Source: Moniliella sp. 'wahieum' (taxonomy: Eukaryota > Basidiomycota > Moniliellomycetes > Moniliellales > Moniliellaceae). Taken from it: a DNA stretch of 64,000 bases. A program made the position numbers and the translations under genes. This document shows positions 1 to 40,970 of this stretch, piece after piece. The notes beneath the pieces were generated by a model that was given only the letters and a program-made list of their open reading frames with translations, did not search any database and was not told the origin of the DNA. The stretch spans positions 1,116,001 to 1,180,000 of the forward strand of contig RSEE01000001.1 in NCBI GenBank assembly GCA_003971905.1, written 5' to 3'. Position 1 is the first letter of the stretch. Each line of letters begins with the position of its first letter.

Positions 1-2092
1 GTCCCGTGGTGTTGCGCAACCCTCTAGCTGTCTGCCAGCTTGTCCGGCTTGCCGCCAAGATTGCGGAGGAGGACCCAGATCGGCGTCGGCAGATGCTTGA
101 TTTGCTCGAGGCGTGGTTGCGGCACACGAGCGATATGGTCAACTACGAGGCAGCTAAAGCAATTTGCGAGTTGCGTGGTGTGAACGAGGTGGAACTCACC
201 AAACCTGTTTCGGTGCTGCGGGTCTTTCTCGGAAGTCCCCGGGGGGTTCTTAAGTTTGCTGCCATTCGCACGTTGTCCAACTTGGCCCAGACTCATCCGC
301 AGGCGGTCAAGGCATGCAACCTCGAGATGGAAAACCTGATTACGGACCCAAACCGCAGCGTAGCGACCTTTGCTATCACACACTCTCCTCAAGACGGGCA
401 ATGAGGCAAGTGTGGACCGTCTGATGAAGCAAATTTCCTCCTTCATGACGGAAATTAGCGATGAATTTAAGGTGGTCGTGCTCGATGCGATTCGGTCATT
501 GTGCCTCAAGTTCCCCTCTAAACAGTCTGTCATGCTTAATTTCCTTTACTCGGTCCTTCGCGAGGAAGGGGGTTATGATTTCAAACGCACGGTTGTGGAT
601 GCAATCATTGACATGATCCGATTCGTCGGGGATTGCAAAGAAGTCGCTCTGGCACATCTGTGTGAGTTTATCGAAGATTGTGAATTCACCAAGCTCTCGG
701 TCCGCATCCTCCACTTACTTGGTCAGGAGGGGCCTTTCATGCCTGCGCCAGCCAAGTTCATCCGCTACATCTACAACCGCGTCATTCTTGAGAATGCTAT
801 TGTTCGGGCAGCGGCAGTCAACAGTCTGGCCAAATTTGGCCTTCATGTACCCAAGTTGCGCCCTCGCATCTCTGTTCTCCTCGAACGCTGCACGGATGAC
901 GTTGACGACGAAGTGCGCGACCGCGCTGTGATTCAACTGGCCCTCCTTCGTCAGCCTCCGCTAGGTGCCAAGCTGCTCGGATCTGATACCAAATCCACAT
1001 TCCGTCTTGCAGCGCTAGAAGAACAACTGACGGGATATTTGGCTGACCCGGCGGCCCAGGCCCAGCCCTTTGATGCTGCCTCCGTTCCTCGCATCACTCA
1101 CGAGGAGGCGACCCAGGCCGCATTGCGGGCCAAAAACGATGCCATCGCTTCGGTCGCGATGGGTTCGGACGCCACGGCGCGCGGGCATTCGGGCAGGAGG
1201 CCCATCCACTTCCGCTGCGGGCGCGGCGGCGATGGGTGCCCCCACCGCATCCCCTCTCCCTCCTACTGCAGCGACGGGCGAGTCGGCATATGCTGCACAG
1301 CTTGCTTCTGTGCCCGCTTTGGCCGAACTGGGGCCTGTACTGCACTCGTCCCGCCAGCCCGTGCTGCACAGAAAGCGAAACAGAGTACACCGTCGCTGCT
1401 GTCAAGCACGTGTTCCCATCCCACTTCGTGGTGCAGTACAATGTGACCAACACGCTCTCCGACACGGTGCTGGAGGACGTGCACGTCGCAGTTGACGGTG
1501 CCTTTGCCGAGGCTGGAGTGGAGCTCGAATCGATCGTGCCTGCTCCGCATGCTTTGACTGTCGCTGAGCCCACGGCATCGACGTACGTCATCTTTAAGCG
1601 GGGCTCATTCCCCTTGTTCTCGTTGGAAAACACGCTCAAGTTTACCTCGAAAGAGGTGGACCCCGTCTCGGGCGAACCCGAGGACGAAGGATATGCGGAC
1701 GAGTACCAGACTCTTGCTCTGGAAGTGGATGCAGCAGACTACATCGACCCCGCCTATGCTGACTTTGCCTCCGAATGGCCCGCCTTAGTGCAGGCGACGG
1801 TCAAGGAAACGTTTGCCTTGACGGCGATGCAAACGCTGCAGGAGGCGTGCGACCAGTTGGTCGAGTTGTATGGGATGCAACCTCTCGAAGGCACCGAGAC
1901 GGTGGGGGCAGCTACAGTCCACACACTCCTCCTTGCTGGTATGGTGTCGGTGCGTCCGATGAGGGCAAACCTGCCAAGGTGTTGGCCCGCTTCCGCATGA
2001 CGCTCGATGGCACGGAGGGTGTCATGCTTGAGCTCACTGCCCACTCGACTTCGGATCCAGCCGTGCAGCTTGTTGCTTCTGTCTTTGCCTAG
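1..2092 (+). CDS. SEC21: Coatomer subunit gamma (gamma-COP), 5' end outside the window
   Basis: Gamma-COP is a large subunit of the COPI coat, which carries cargo from Golgi to ER. The first ~1,000 nt encode the adaptin-type HEAT solenoid, including the stretches LMKQISSFMTEISDEFKVVV, FIEDCEFTKLSVRILHLLGQ and YIYNRVILE, which closely match family members. A Pro/Ala/Ser-rich linker follows (about 1,130-1,360), then the C-terminal appendage (ear) domain beginning near ETEYTVAAVKHVFPSHFVVQ and ending at TAG 2090-2092. The reading frame changes at about 391, 1,130-1,200, 1,355 and 1,940. At 391, removing one base restores the conserved AITTLLKTGNE. No intron was recognised. The N-terminal part lies upstream of the window. 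The family assignment is secure; the frame changes are probably sequencing errors. Confidence 0.93.
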
Positions 2093-2909
2093 TTCCATCT
2101 CCCGACGCCATTCGCCTTTCAAAACTCAATCGATGCTGCGCCTCTCGTTTGGTCTTACAGTGATGTGGATAGTGTAGTGAAACGCAGTATTTTGTCCGGA
2201 CTGGATTGAGGTCGGCGATGTCGACTAGTGAAAGAGAGTCAGCGGACAACTTATCCATGCTGCGGTTATTCTCCGCGGCCGGGCGTGATTGCGCTCATCA
2301 GTATACGCCCTAATGGCCACCATAGTCAACGTTCAACCCAGGTGCTAGTGCCCGTCGCGTTCAGCCAGTCCCGTCGCCCCCCCAACACAATTCGTACAGG
2401 CCTGAAAGCCATGCCCCGCCCCCCCGAGTTATAGGCGCAGGAGAGAGAGTGCTGCTGATGAAGTGATTACAGACAATGCCATTGTCGATGGAGCACCGAT
2501 GTTGATGGAGCTGAACGAGGAGCTGCGTAGGGGGAATCAGGTGTGGTTGCCGCCAACAAGGGCACTTTCACATGGGGTTGTGCGGCCGGGGCGGGGTGCG
2601 ATGGGGCCCACGTAACCCAAACCCCAACAGTTTTTAATTACACGATGTCCTGCGTAGCAGGGCAGGACTTGGTCAGTAGGGTTGCCAGCAGAAGGGCAGT
2701 GTTGAGCCGGGCATTGCGGGGGCACGCTTCAGGACAGAATTAGAATCCCTCTGTGGAGAAACAGGCCATGGCGGCGATCGTCACGTGTGAGCGTCAACCA
2801 CAATGCGAGCGCGTGGCCAACGCTTGCGCGGCTGCCACCACTCCTTTCAAGACCTTCAAACTTCACCACCCATCATTCACCCTCTATCCTCACCTCCACC
2901 TTCACCACC
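2093..2909. other. Intergenic region with a repeat relic
   Basis: The stretch between gamma-COP and the acyltransferase gene holds no convincing gene. Its short open frames lack any recognisable motif. It contains a sequence resembling part of the LTR-like element near 24.2 kb (see 2223-2280). The last ~100 bases before 2910 are C/T-rich (CACC/CATC repeats), as is usual for a fungal promoter or 5' leader. Confidence 0.6.
2223..2280 (+). repeat. Degenerate copy of the 24.2-kb LTR-like repeat
   Basis: This segment aligns by eye to 24222-24276. Both contain GACTAG, then a GAGAG(C/T)CAG-like stretch, then CTTATCC(A/T)TGCTGCGG and CTCCGCGGCC, at roughly three quarters identity. It is best read as an old, mutated fragment of the same dispersed element. 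No ends or target-site duplication could be defined. Confidence 0.4.
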
Positions 2910-5332
2910 ATGTCGATGGAGCGCAAATCCAAGGTGGGCAAAGCACCTACAGCCCTAGGAGGCGAAGAGGCTGTTAGCGCGGCCGCCCATCGCGAAGCCA
3001 AGCTGATGCAGAGCTTCAACTTGGACGGCTCCGTGTCCGCCCCTGCACCCAGTCGGGAGGAGCTCAACATTTTCGCCGCGTACAAGGCACGCTTCCGCGA
3101 GGATCCTCTTGCATTTCTCCATATGGTATGGGATTATGGTGTCGGCGCGGACTGGCGTAGCTACAAACTACATTGGTGCTCCTATCCTTTATCCCTCTGC
3201 CACAGTTGAGGCGATCCACAGCCTGGTCATGAGTGAGGCTGTGCAGCTGCGTATCAACCAGCTTGCCACTGCTCGGGTCGACGCTCTCCTTCCCGACGAC
3301 TCTGCTCCCAAGACAAACAAGGAACGCAAGGCCTACATTATTTTCAAGCAGCGCAAACACGCCGACATGGTTCGCCAGCTCTCCGATACGACGCGCGGGA
3401 TTGCAGAAAAAATGGCTGCACGGCTGGACAGCCCTCCAGTTCTCAAGATTTTCGCGGCTACAGTCAACAATGTTCTCGGCCGCCTGTACCACCAAGGCGT
3501 TTTCATCAACGTTTCAGAGATCATTGCCCTGCGCCAAATCGCACTGAAAGCAGCGGAGAAGAAACAGAGCATCGTCTTCCTTCCCTGTCACAATCCACAT
3601 TGACTACCTCACTGTAAGCTGGATCATGTTCCGCATCGGATCGCCGTTCCGCACATTGTGGCTGGGGAAAACCTGGACATGCCTCTTGTCGGCGACTTTC
3701 TCCGTAAGGGGGCGCAATGTTCATTCGCCGCTCCTTTAAAGGAGACCAACTGTATCCCGTTGTGATTCGCGAGTACATTGAGCAGGTCATCGCCTCGGGC
3801 AAGAATCTCGAATGTTTTATTGAAGGCACTCGATCCCGCACGGGCAAGCTCCTTCCCCCCAAATTTGGCATCTTGAGCTACATTGTCGATGCGTTTTTGG
3901 CCGGCCGCACATCGGACGTGTGGATCTGCCCCATCTCGCTCCAGTACGACAGTGTTATTGAGAGCGAAACGTACGTGTCGGAGCTGCTTGGCAAACCGAA
4001 AGAGTCCGAGTCGCTTATGGGTCTCCTGAGTGGCTCAACTGATATTCTCCAACTCAAGATGGGGCGGATCGACATTCGTTTCCAGCAACCTTGGTCGCTG
4101 AAAGAGTTTGTCGACTCGGAACAGATCAGTCGCACAGCTGCTCAGGGGGTCGAGTTCCAGCCCCGCACTCCAAAGGACAATCATATTCTGCTCAAGAGTC
4201 TGGGTTACCGCGTATTGAGTGACATTAACCGCGTGAGTGTCGTCATGCCTGCCGCTCTGGTGGGAACTGTGATCCTTACCCTCCGCGGCCGAGGGTGGGC
4301 AAACGTGAGCTCATTCACCGGGTCGAAATGTTGCGCGCACGCATCCTCCAGAAGGGCTACCGTGTTGCCGACTTTGGCACGATGTCCACCTCGGAGGTGG
4401 TGGACCGCGCGCTGGGATTGATGAAGGGCCTGATTGTTGTCCACAATGACTTGCTCGAGCCTACCTTTGAGCCAGTCAAGCGCTTTGATCTCTCCCTCTA
4501 CCGCAACCAAACGATCCACTGCTTTGTCTCCGAGGTACTCTTGGCCGCCACGTTCTACACGACCATGAAGCAAGGTCCCTCTCACAGCTCTGGGATGATG
4601 GCCCGGGACGAATTTGTGACTGAGGTCTCCTTCCTCTCGTGGATTCTCAAAATGAGTTTATCTTCCCTCCTGGTCGGATCGAGGACACTGTGCAACGGGG
4701 GATCCAGGAAATGGAGGCAGATGGTGTCTTCACTGTCGCTGAAGATGGGCAATTGGCCTTAGGGCCGAGGAGATTGCGAGTGGGCGGGAAACATTTGATT
4801 CCTATCTCTTCATGGTTTGGCCATTCATTGAGGGTTACTGGCTTGCTGCATGTGCCTTACTCTGTCTCATGCCTTCTTCGGAGCTTGAAACGGGGGAGCA
4901 CATCGTTTGGGTCAGCGCCAAAGAGTTTGAGAAGCGCGCTCAATTGTTTGGCAAGACGCTCTACCAGCAAGGCGAGCTCTCTTACCTTGAGGCCAACTCC
5001 ATCGCTGTTCTGCAGCAAGCTATGGTGAGGTATCAAGAGATGGGAATCCTTATGCGACGCTCTTCTAAGGCGATCAAGCCCATCCCTATCATTGGATTGC
5101 ACCCGGACTGGAAACCCCAATGGGAGGAGGTCCAAGGAGAACGGCGTCCGCGACCAATGGGCCGGCTTTGGGATTACCTCGTTCACCTCGGCACCTTCCG
5201 ACGTGAGGGAAGGACCGCAGGGAAGCGCTCATGGGTCAGCGGATCTTGCAAAACGCTTCGGGCAACACAGCACCTGTCATCGAACGTTCCCCTTGGCCAG
5301 AACGTCCGGTCGAGGCCTTGGCGCACCTTTAG
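2910..5332 (+). CDS. PlsB/DHAPAT-type glycerone-phosphate or glycerol-3-phosphate acyltransferase with C-terminal AHL
   Basis: The enzyme acylates dihydroxyacetone phosphate or glycerol 3-phosphate, the first step of glycerolipid or ether-lipid synthesis. The start is the ATG after TTCACCACC (MSMERKSK). The catalytic HX4D motif (H-x-S-H-I-D) lies at about 3,585-3,606 but is split by a two-base loss. Later motifs are RRSFKGD (3,730), FIEGTRSRTGKLLPPKFGIL (about 3,820-3,880) and ICPISLQYD (3,925). The frame changes at about 3,160, 3,592, 4,286, 4,655, 4,770 and 5,212, mostly single losses in G, A or C runs. In the last frame the protein ends ERPVEALAHL then TAG 5330-5332. AHL fits the peroxisomal PTS1 pattern [SAC][KRH][LM], as in mammalian DHAPAT. 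Well-known ascomycete Gpt2/Sct1 enzymes belong to a different subfamily. Family is certain; the peroxisomal assignment is an inference that depends on the last frame. Confidence 0.88.
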
Positions 5333-39428: not shown

Positions 39429-39662
39429 ATGCTCGGCATGATCGTAGGGTTTAACCGCAACGTGCTTAAATCGGCAACTGTCGGGCCGGCTATAAGCTTT
39501 TTATAAGCGGTAACTAATATCTGACGGCAAAAGATATTATGCGGTACTCCGCTTTTGTAACGCGGTAAAAACATGTAACAGGTAACATGTATAACACTAT
39601 GGGGACGGGATGACGTGTGGCCATTTCATTCTGAATTTAGCATTCGCAGATCTTTGAGACAG

Positions 39663-39902
39663 TGTTGGCCTAGGGAGCCGGACGGGCAGAAGGATGAGGA
39701 GAAGGTGATGGATTGGAGCCAGAGTTGGGTCTGGGTACAGAGGCATCTATATAGGAGGCTGGACTAGGCACAGGGACAGTGAGTCACACAGGAGAGAGTG
39801 CAGGGCACAGGGACAGTGACACGCAGGGACGTCAGCGTGGAAGCCGATGGAACCGAGGCGAACCTGGTCTACCGACTGGGAGCCAGAGGATCACAGTCAA
39901 CA
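39663..39902 (+). repeat. Left LTR of the TRIM element
   Basis: 240 bp, TGTTG...CAACA. It contains a TATA-like CATCTATATAGGAGG near 39,745 and two copies of GGCACAGGGACAGTGA about 55 bases apart. Confidence 0.93.
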
Positions 39903-40400
39903 GAAGTAAAAGTAGTAGGGGTTGCGCCCCGAAGCGATTTGGTGGGCAAAAGTAAAAAGCACCAGTTATAGGTGTAGTGAAAGAAAATTGGAAACTTGGA
40001 GTAAATGCGGTCCAAGGTCGTTTGGCATCAAAATTGGATGCGTTTGGTAGTTGTTTGGTTCCGCATGCCTGGTGCCAGGGGTCCATTGGGCATGGGAAAT
40101 GAACGGGCGCTATGCGTCAACCGTCTTGATCTGTTTGGGTTCTTTTGTTGTTGAAAAAGAGGAGTGGAAGAAGTTGGGTGACCACCCCCCCCCATCCTTT
40201 CCCCAGGTGCCCCGGATGAATTGGCAATCCGGGGCGTGTAGCCGTGGGTGGGGCACTTGATGAGCAGCCACCCCCGCTTTCTGCGATTCGCCTGCGCCGT
40301 TTTGTCGTTGGAGGAATTTCGTCTCGTTGACGATACCCGACACGTTTTGTTCGTCGTGTGTTGTCCCTAAAAATCATTGCCCCATCTGTGGGGGACGAGT

Positions 40401-40479
40401 GTGCCGATTGTGGCGGTAGTATGCCGATTGTGGCGGTAGTATGCCGATTGTGGCGTAAGGTGCCGATTGTGGCGGTGGT
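40401..40479 (+). repeat. 20-bp tandem repeat inside the TRIM element
   Basis: Four units of GTATGCCGATTGTGGCGGTA-like sequence; the third has lost a G and the fourth is slightly diverged. Confidence 0.9.
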
Positions 40480-40598
40480 GTTGTTGGGCGGGAGGACGGG
40501 TGTGTCTTGTGGGCTTGGCGGCTTAGCTTGGGCTTGTAGGCTTGGGGGTGGGCTTGCTTGAAGAGCGCTCCCCTTCCGGGGGGATCAGATTGTAGCTC

Positions 40599-40837
40599 TG
40601 TTGGCCTAGGGAGCCGGACGGGCAGAAGGATGAGGAGAAGGTGATGGATTGGAGCCAGAGTTGGGTCTGGGTACAGAGGCATCTATATAGGAGGCTGGAC
40701 TAGGCACAGGGACAGTGAGTCACACAGGAGAGAGTGCAGGGCACAGGGACAGTGACACGCAGGGACGTCAGCGTGGAAGCCGATGGAACCGAGGCGAACC
40801 TGGCTACCGACTGGGAGCCAGAGGATCACAGTCAACA
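40599..40837 (+). repeat. Right LTR of the TRIM element
   Basis: 239 bp. The only difference seen against the left copy is one missing T (CTGGTCTACC against CTGGCTACC), so the insertion is recent or the copies have been kept alike. Confidence 0.93.
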
Positions 40838-40970
40838 GACAGAGACAGAGAAATGCTACACCTCTCAGGCCTCAGGCTTGCTTGGCGCTCACATGCACGT
40901 TGCACGCTGAGCGCTCAAAGTCGCTCATCCGGCATGTGCTCTGTTGTTCGTACAACGTCAACAATCCGCA

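What the first reader, a model, noticed from the sequence alone, without database searches (positions are those of the whole stretch)
39663..40837. Complete TRIM-type retroelement with intact target-site duplication
Two ~240-bp direct repeats with TGTTG...CAACA ends differ by one base, bound 696 bp without coding capacity, and are flanked by a perfect 5-bp duplication GACAG. This is a full non-autonomous LTR element of only 1,175 bp. TRIM elements are well known in plants and reported less often in fungi. The near identity of the LTRs suggests recent movement, so an autonomous partner should exist elsewhere in the genome. No standard primer site lies next to the LTR, so priming may be unusual.
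Basis: seen in the sequence. Interest (0 to 1): 0.72.

Follow-up and report, generated by a model that had tools for sequence, protein, structure and literature searches.

The report
Mini retrotransposon with likely Copia partner
This is one damaged copy of a small, protein-less jumping element that has recently spread through this genome, most likely by borrowing the machinery of a larger Copia retrotransposon with which it shares only the short start signals for DNA copying and the extreme ends.

Summary
Confirmed: 240- and 239-bp direct repeats, 696-bp interior, 5-bp duplication GACAG. It belongs to a dispersed family with 219 LTR-end matches in the 69.5-Mb assembly. Full copies are about 1.40 kb; this one lacks 220 bp ending at the inner edge of the 3' LTR, so its polypurine tract is gone; (3) a priming site is present, beside the other LTR, at 40598-40585. 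Transposition is shown directly: 6 of 9 TRIM loci tested have an uninterrupted homologous locus elsewhere with a single TSD copy (not found for the window locus), and 14 of 16 isolated copies have a perfect 5-bp TSD. LTR pairs show no substitutions in the 27 rows compared, only indels. A candidate helper was found: a 5.27-kb Copia family (RVT_2, integrase; 19 PBS matches) with unrelated LTRs that shares 17 nt across the 5' LTR/PBS junction and 21 nt across the PPT/3' LTR junction. An exact-match search found no larger element with the TRIM's own LTR end. The primer RNA is not identified; an anticodon-arm half-tRNA is the lead. New member of a known kind.

The parts
39658..39662 (.). Target-site duplication GACAG, left copy
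   Evidence: (left and right 5-mers identical)
39663..39902 (-). 3' LTR in the element's own orientation (240 bp); on the minus strand TGTTGACTG...GGCCAACA
   Evidence: orientation from PBS/PPT shared with a Copia element
39902..39903 (-). Junction of a 220-bp internal deletion (1-bp microhomology) that removes the PPT and ends at the inner edge of the 3' LTR
   Evidence: 220-bp deletion run in the window copy; the longest deletion run in the other 15 isolated copies is 34 bp
39903..40598 (-). Remaining internal domain (696 bp), no coding domain detected in the full-length relative L002
40401..40479 (.). Minisatellite of four roughly 20-bp units inside the internal domain
   Evidence: family D2; three isolated copies have a 20-bp insertion run, whose position was not checked
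40585..40598 (-). Primer binding site GAGCTACAATCTGA, directly after the 5' LTR
   Evidence: identical 14 nt in Copia L069/L070
40599..40837 (-). 5' LTR in the element's own orientation (239 bp, one T fewer)
40838..40842 (.). Target-site duplication GACAG, right copy

Best explanation
The feature is one internally deleted copy of a non-autonomous miniature LTR retrotransposon (TRIM-type) on the minus strand. Shown: the family is dispersed; isolated copies are flanked by 5-bp TSDs; empty homologous sites exist for other copies; the interior has no recognised coding domain; the 17-nt PBS-side and 21-nt PPT-side terminal segments are shared with a 5.27-kb Copia family whose LTRs are otherwise unrelated. 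Inferred: a transcript made from a TATA-like promoter in the LTR (motif recognised by eye) is taken up by Copia particles; an RNA that pairs with GAGCTACAATCTGA, probably a half-tRNA ending in the anticodon arm as in Ty5 and Drosophila copia, primes the minus strand; the PPT CTGGCCAGCGGGGG primes the plus strand; Copia integrase recognises the TGTTGAC...ACA ends and makes the 5-bp TSD. The window copy lost 220 bp including the PPT, during its own synthesis or later, so it can probably not be copied further by this route.
For: Family: 219 LTR-start matches at 3 mismatches or fewer, reversed control 0. TSD: of 27 clusters kept, 17 have an exact 5-bp TSD: 14 of 16 isolated two-LTR copies and 3 of 11 arrays or array/nested pieces (some of these rows overlap). 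Empty sites: 6 of 9 joined-flank queries hit one uninterrupted homologous locus (87-97% identity), with a single TSD copy at the junction; a seventh (L025) lies in a repeat whose other copies run across the junction. LTR pairs: 0 substitutions in all 27 rows. Helper: in L069 RVT_2 (2.4e-34), integrase rve (1.5e-9) and SH3_retrovirus, with integrase upstream of RT as in Copia; shared ends in L069 and L070; of 21 exact PBS-junction matches outside AACA-ended LTRs, 19 read GACAG as in L069 and 2 lie in TRIM copies; 15 of those 19 lie about 4.8 kb from a matching PPT junction among the 100 listed of 160; 4 of 4 Copia copies looked at have 5-bp TSDs by reading of the printed ends. No larger element with the TRIM's LTR end: 0 exact hits.
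Against: No expression, packaging or mobilisation data exist. The shared ends could be convergent or common to other Copia families that were not sampled. The primer RNA was not found: four pattern searches gave no gene recognised as the predicted tRNA (with 24, 36, 57). The window locus and L007 gave no empty homologue, but only 40 of 153 candidates were scored and 32 of the 40 were one repeat, so this says little. 2 of 16 isolated copies lack an exact TSD (L020, L027). By exact match the PBS was intact in 13 of 16 and the PPT junction in 12 of 16 copies, window included.
Confidence: 0.82

Rival explanations
1. The TRIM is mobilised by a different, unsampled or extinct autonomous element, and the Copia family merely uses the same primer and similar ends.
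For: TRIM (L002) and Copia (L069, L070) LTRs and interiors are otherwise unrelated (beyond the 21-bp end match only one 38-nt, 76% match). Only exact-match patterns were used to look for alternatives; a family whose LTR ends in AACA and has T after the PBS would have been missed.
Against: Both terminal segments are shared at exactly corresponding places (17 nt and 21 nt). Outside AACA-ended LTRs the exact PBS junction was found only in this Copia type and in two TRIM copies. Both families make 5-bp TSDs.
Confidence: 0.15
2. The repeats are a local tandem duplication or assembly artefact.
For: The assembly is redundant and copies differ mainly by indels. Some copies do sit in tandem arrays.
Against: 219 LTR ends, the listed ones on many contigs, TSDs, and six empty homologous sites with one TSD copy.
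Confidence: 0.02
3. The 220-bp deletion is a template-switch product of reverse transcription, not a later genomic deletion.
For: It ends at the LTR inner edge, beside a G-rich tract, with 1 bp of microhomology.
Against: A cDNA without PPT could hardly start its plus strand. The window copy also carries five other small deletion runs. Both scenarios give the same structure.
Confidence: 0.35

Closest known systems
SMART FRetro129 with putative helper FRetro64 (rice relative; PMC3281118, passages seen)
   Same: Non-coding small LTR element with 5-bp TSD; no LTR similarity detected to its putative helper beyond an 11-bp motif, but similar PBS and PPT
   Different: FRetro129 shares 96% identity in its interior with FRetro64; here the shared stretches found are the terminal 17 and 21 nt, and the element is 1.4 kb, not 292 bp
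Fungal Helenus TRIMs of rusts (PMC10886601, abstract and passages seen)
   Same: TRIM; 5-bp TSD; PBS similar to that of Copia families; PBS mostly complementary to a tRNA anticodon loop; in one pair the LTRs of TRIM and Copia are not similar
   Different: Helenus LTRs carry a tRNA-derived sequence; none was found in L002 at E 5 or better. The primer tRNA is not identified here
TRIMs recorded in three of five Boletales genomes (PMC5689174, passages seen)
   Same: TRIM-type non-coding LTR elements in basidiomycete fungi
   Different: Given as copy counts in the passages seen; no helper or empty sites described there
Wukong TRIM (maize; PMC4528315, passages seen) and Cassandra arrays (PMC7215508, passages seen)
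   Same: Tandem LTR-interior-LTR-interior-LTR arrays
   Different: Plant families; no sequence comparison was made

Membership tests
TRIM | Two near-identical terminal direct repeats with TG...CA ends | tested here: met
TRIM | Target-site duplication of fixed length | tested here: met
   GACAG; 14 of 16 isolated copies
TRIM | PBS after the 5' LTR and PPT before the 3' LTR | tested here: met
   Met by the family (exact PBS in 13 of 16 and exact PPT junction in 12 of 16 copies); the window copy keeps the PBS and has lost the PPT. That they work as PBS and PPT is inferred from position and from the Copia
TRIM | No coding capacity | tested here: met
   Three longest distinct ORF pieces of L002 give no Pfam family above cut-off (one match at E 0.68); ORFs up to 242 aa stop to stop exist and are taken as chance
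TRIM | Small size (stated as under 1000 bp in PMC10886601) | tested here: inconclusive
   Full copies about 1.40 kb and window copy 1175 bp. The same paper includes Helenus up to 1263 bp, so the limit is not strict; a limit of about 1.5 kb is recalled, not seen
Helenus / TRIMp3 | tRNA-derived sequence in the LTR | tested here: not met
   Rfam scan of L002 at E 5 or better: only three weak RsmY matches far below cut-off
Ty1/copia superfamily (proposed helper L069) | RVT_2 reverse transcriptase with integrase upstream of it | tested here: met
   (RVT_2 in 352-1800 minus; rve in 1709-3823 minus)
Anticodon-arm half-tRNA priming (Ty5/copia type) | PBS complementary to a host tRNA anticodon arm | tested here: inconclusive
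   Best of 22 distinct tRNA sequences held: tRNA-Phe, 11 of 14 aligned at tRNA positions 27-40, unspliced; 7 of 200 shuffled PBS reached 11

The most novel reading that the evidence does not exclude
A TRIM family is mobilised in trans by a Copia element although the two share only about 38 nt, namely the LTR tips plus PBS and the PPT. Recognition would then depend on primer, PPT and integrase ends alone, with no shared packaging sequence or LTR homology.
Probability: 0.5. Interest if true: 0.55.

Novelty: new member of a known kind. Interest (0 to 1): 0.42.

Why it matters
Helpers of TRIMs are rarely identified: one plant survey found larger elements for only 11 of 289 TRIM subfamilies by sequence similarity (PMC4717578, passages). 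Here a candidate helper emerged from the two short replication signals instead, in the same genome. That gives a concrete pair in which to ask the minimum that an LTR parasite must share with its host element. The empty homologous sites also make the family a ready set of likely polymorphic markers.

Tried and rejected
Primer search: I predicted a tRNA-Tyr half primer from the PBS and looked for it by pattern. The single hit is no tRNA. One search gave one hit (control 2), no tRNA by reading (where permissive ARAGORN settings gave many false calls, which I discarded). One search gave four hits: one a TRIM copy (L075), two homologous to each other (L073, L076), none a tRNA by reading. One search gave 66 hits (control 46); many look like other tRNA genes caught from the D-arm, and none was recognised as tRNA-Tyr by reading. 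One of them (C126), which I took for tRNA-Tyr, looks like a leucine-type tRNA (by reading). tRNA-Phe is only a lead. tRNA-like promoter in the LTR: rejected. Ten further Copia copies: not fetched for the same reason; two of them were fetched. Dating: not used as a clock, because differences between copies are almost all indels and the loci were picked by similarity to the window copy. My note says that most tRNA loci come in pairs; the count is 16 of 30. Papers: searches are search listings; passages seen are.

Full report
Observation. They enclose 696 bp and are flanked by GACAG on both sides.

Family. In the window's own genome (69,493,810 bases, 223 contigs) the first 27 bases of the LTR match 219 places with up to 3 mismatches (100 listed) and the reversed control none. 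With the whole element as query, 106 matches were reported from 40 scored of 183 candidates. Full-length copies there match the window copy in two parts, query 1-240 and 240-1175, with about 219 bp of their own between them. Of the listed matches only the window runs end to end.

Orientation, PBS and PPT. A search for the LTR/interior junction gave 160 matches. Of the 100 listed, 79 are perfect and 21 have one mismatch, 18 of these the same one (CCAGAG). Two of the 18 were fetched (L069, L070). Both are 5.27-kb Copia-type elements, 99.66% identical to each other, with their own LTRs of about 210 bp (LTR pairs 99.5% and 96.8% identical). In L069 the scanned ORF pieces contain RVT_2 (2.4e-34), rve integrase (1.5e-9), Pol_BBD and SH3_retrovirus. 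Their genes show which end is 5'. Read in that direction, the TRIM's LTR begins TGTTGACTG and ends GGCCAACA, the interior begins GAGCTACAATCTGA, and CTGGCCAGCGGGGG stands immediately before the 3' LTR. The Copia has the same 14-nt PBS (17 nt including the LTR's last ACA) and the same 14-nt PPT (21 nt including TGTTGAC). The rest of the LTRs and interiors is unrelated, apart from one 38-nt, 76% match.

The window copy is deleted. Sixteen isolated copies were compared with the array copy L002. The window copy lacks 220 bp that end at the start of the 3' LTR, with 1 bp of microhomology. This removes the PPT. The longest deletion run in the other 15 is 34 bp; L020 has a 110-bp insertion. The window copy's PBS and LTR ends are intact. 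Substitutions against L002 number 0-4 per copy; most other differences are 1-bp deletions.

Transposition. In one search I clustered LTRs in loci L001-L038. Single LTRs, clusters within 30 bp of a locus end, and plus-strand clusters whose first LTR does not start at base 1 were left out. Of the 27 clusters kept, 16 are isolated two-LTR copies by my sorting, and 14 of these have an exact 5-bp TSD (exceptions L020, L027). Three arrays of three or four LTRs have a TSD around the whole array (L012, L034, L038). The other eight are pieces of arrays or nested copies without one, some overlapping those arrays. No first-last LTR pair in the 27 rows differs by a substitution; 0-7 gap columns are seen. 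The loci were found by similarity to the window copy, so young copies are over-represented. For nine loci I joined the flanks with one TSD copy and searched the genome (40 scored of 153 candidates). Six have one uninterrupted homologous locus at 87-97% identity (L006, L015, L016, L037, L030, L004). Alignment shows a single TSD copy at each junction, and homology extends over the flanks held. L025 lies inside a dispersed repeat whose other copies run across the junction. L007 and the window locus gave no homologue, but 32 of the 40 scored places were that one repeat, so nothing follows from this. Of the 30 tRNA loci fetched, 16 fall into groups alike at 82-98% over long stretches. With the empty sites this suggests that the assembly holds two haplotypes or subgenomes, so these insertions would be heterozygous; that is inference.

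Helper. Outside LTRs ending in AACA, the PBS junction occurs 21 times exactly: 19 as in L069, and 2 inside TRIM copies. Of the 19, 15 lie about 4.8 kb from a matching PPT junction among the listed places, one at 3.3 kb, and three have no listed partner. Four Copia copies looked at have 5-bp TSDs by reading: TACCC, TGCGT, CATGG, TTCAG. An element with the TRIM's LTR end and PBS but a different next base was not found (0 exact hits). That the Copia mobilises the TRIM is inference from shared signals, equal TSD length and apparently recent activity of both.

Primer. The PBS does not begin with the TGG of a tRNA 3' end. A 2024 study of fungal Helenus TRIMs reports PBSs complementary to tRNA anticodon loops and similar to those of Copia families (PMC10886601, passages). 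I tested this and could not identify the tRNA. Of 22 distinct tRNA sequences held, tRNA-Phe fits best (11 of 14, unspliced, at positions 27-40), but 7 of 200 shuffled PBSs did as well. It is a lead only, and most of the tRNA set was never seen.

Coding and promoter. Three ORF pieces of the full copy L002 (191, 242, 119 aa) have no Pfam match above cut-off. No tRNA-like sequence was found in L002, so a Pol III type TRIM is not supported. A TATA-like CTATATAG stands in the LTR; I read it by eye and did not test it.

Verdict. An ordinary kind of thing, well supported: a recently active TRIM family, with this copy crippled. The part of interest is the candidate helper, which shares only the terminal signals.

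Noticed in passing
L002, L003, L008 (G000 contig C145:52602-58397): TRIM copies in a direct array of LTR-interior units followed by inverted pieces. Three other arrays (L012, L034, L038) carry a single TSD around the whole array, as expected from LTR-LTR unequal exchange or insertion as a unit.
   Followed up: partly
L006 (C55:233232-234631) and empty homologue L091: One TRIM lies about 13 codons before the end of an ORF that, in the uninterrupted homologous locus, has a fatty acid hydroxylase domain (PF04116, 3.3e-11).
   Followed up: partly
L090 (C1:621040-621200) and L011 (C32): Two TRIM loci lie next to tRNA genes: an array ends 20 bp upstream of a tRNA-Thr, and a tRNA-Phe lies about 120 bp from an LTR. 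Targeting was not tested.
   Followed up: no
L099-L102 and further places listed: A dispersed repeat, about 200 bp in L025, with 32 places in the list, into which the L025 TRIM inserted.
   Followed up: no
Whole genome G000: 16 of 30 fetched tRNA loci fall into groups 82-98% alike, and TRIM copies differ mainly by 1-bp deletions (some tRNA-Ala copies too): probably a heterozygous long-read assembly with indel errors.
   Followed up: partly
L039-L068: 25 of the 30 fetched tRNA loci hold nearly the same tRNA-Ala(AGC) on many contigs; gene copies or a repeat.
   Followed up: no
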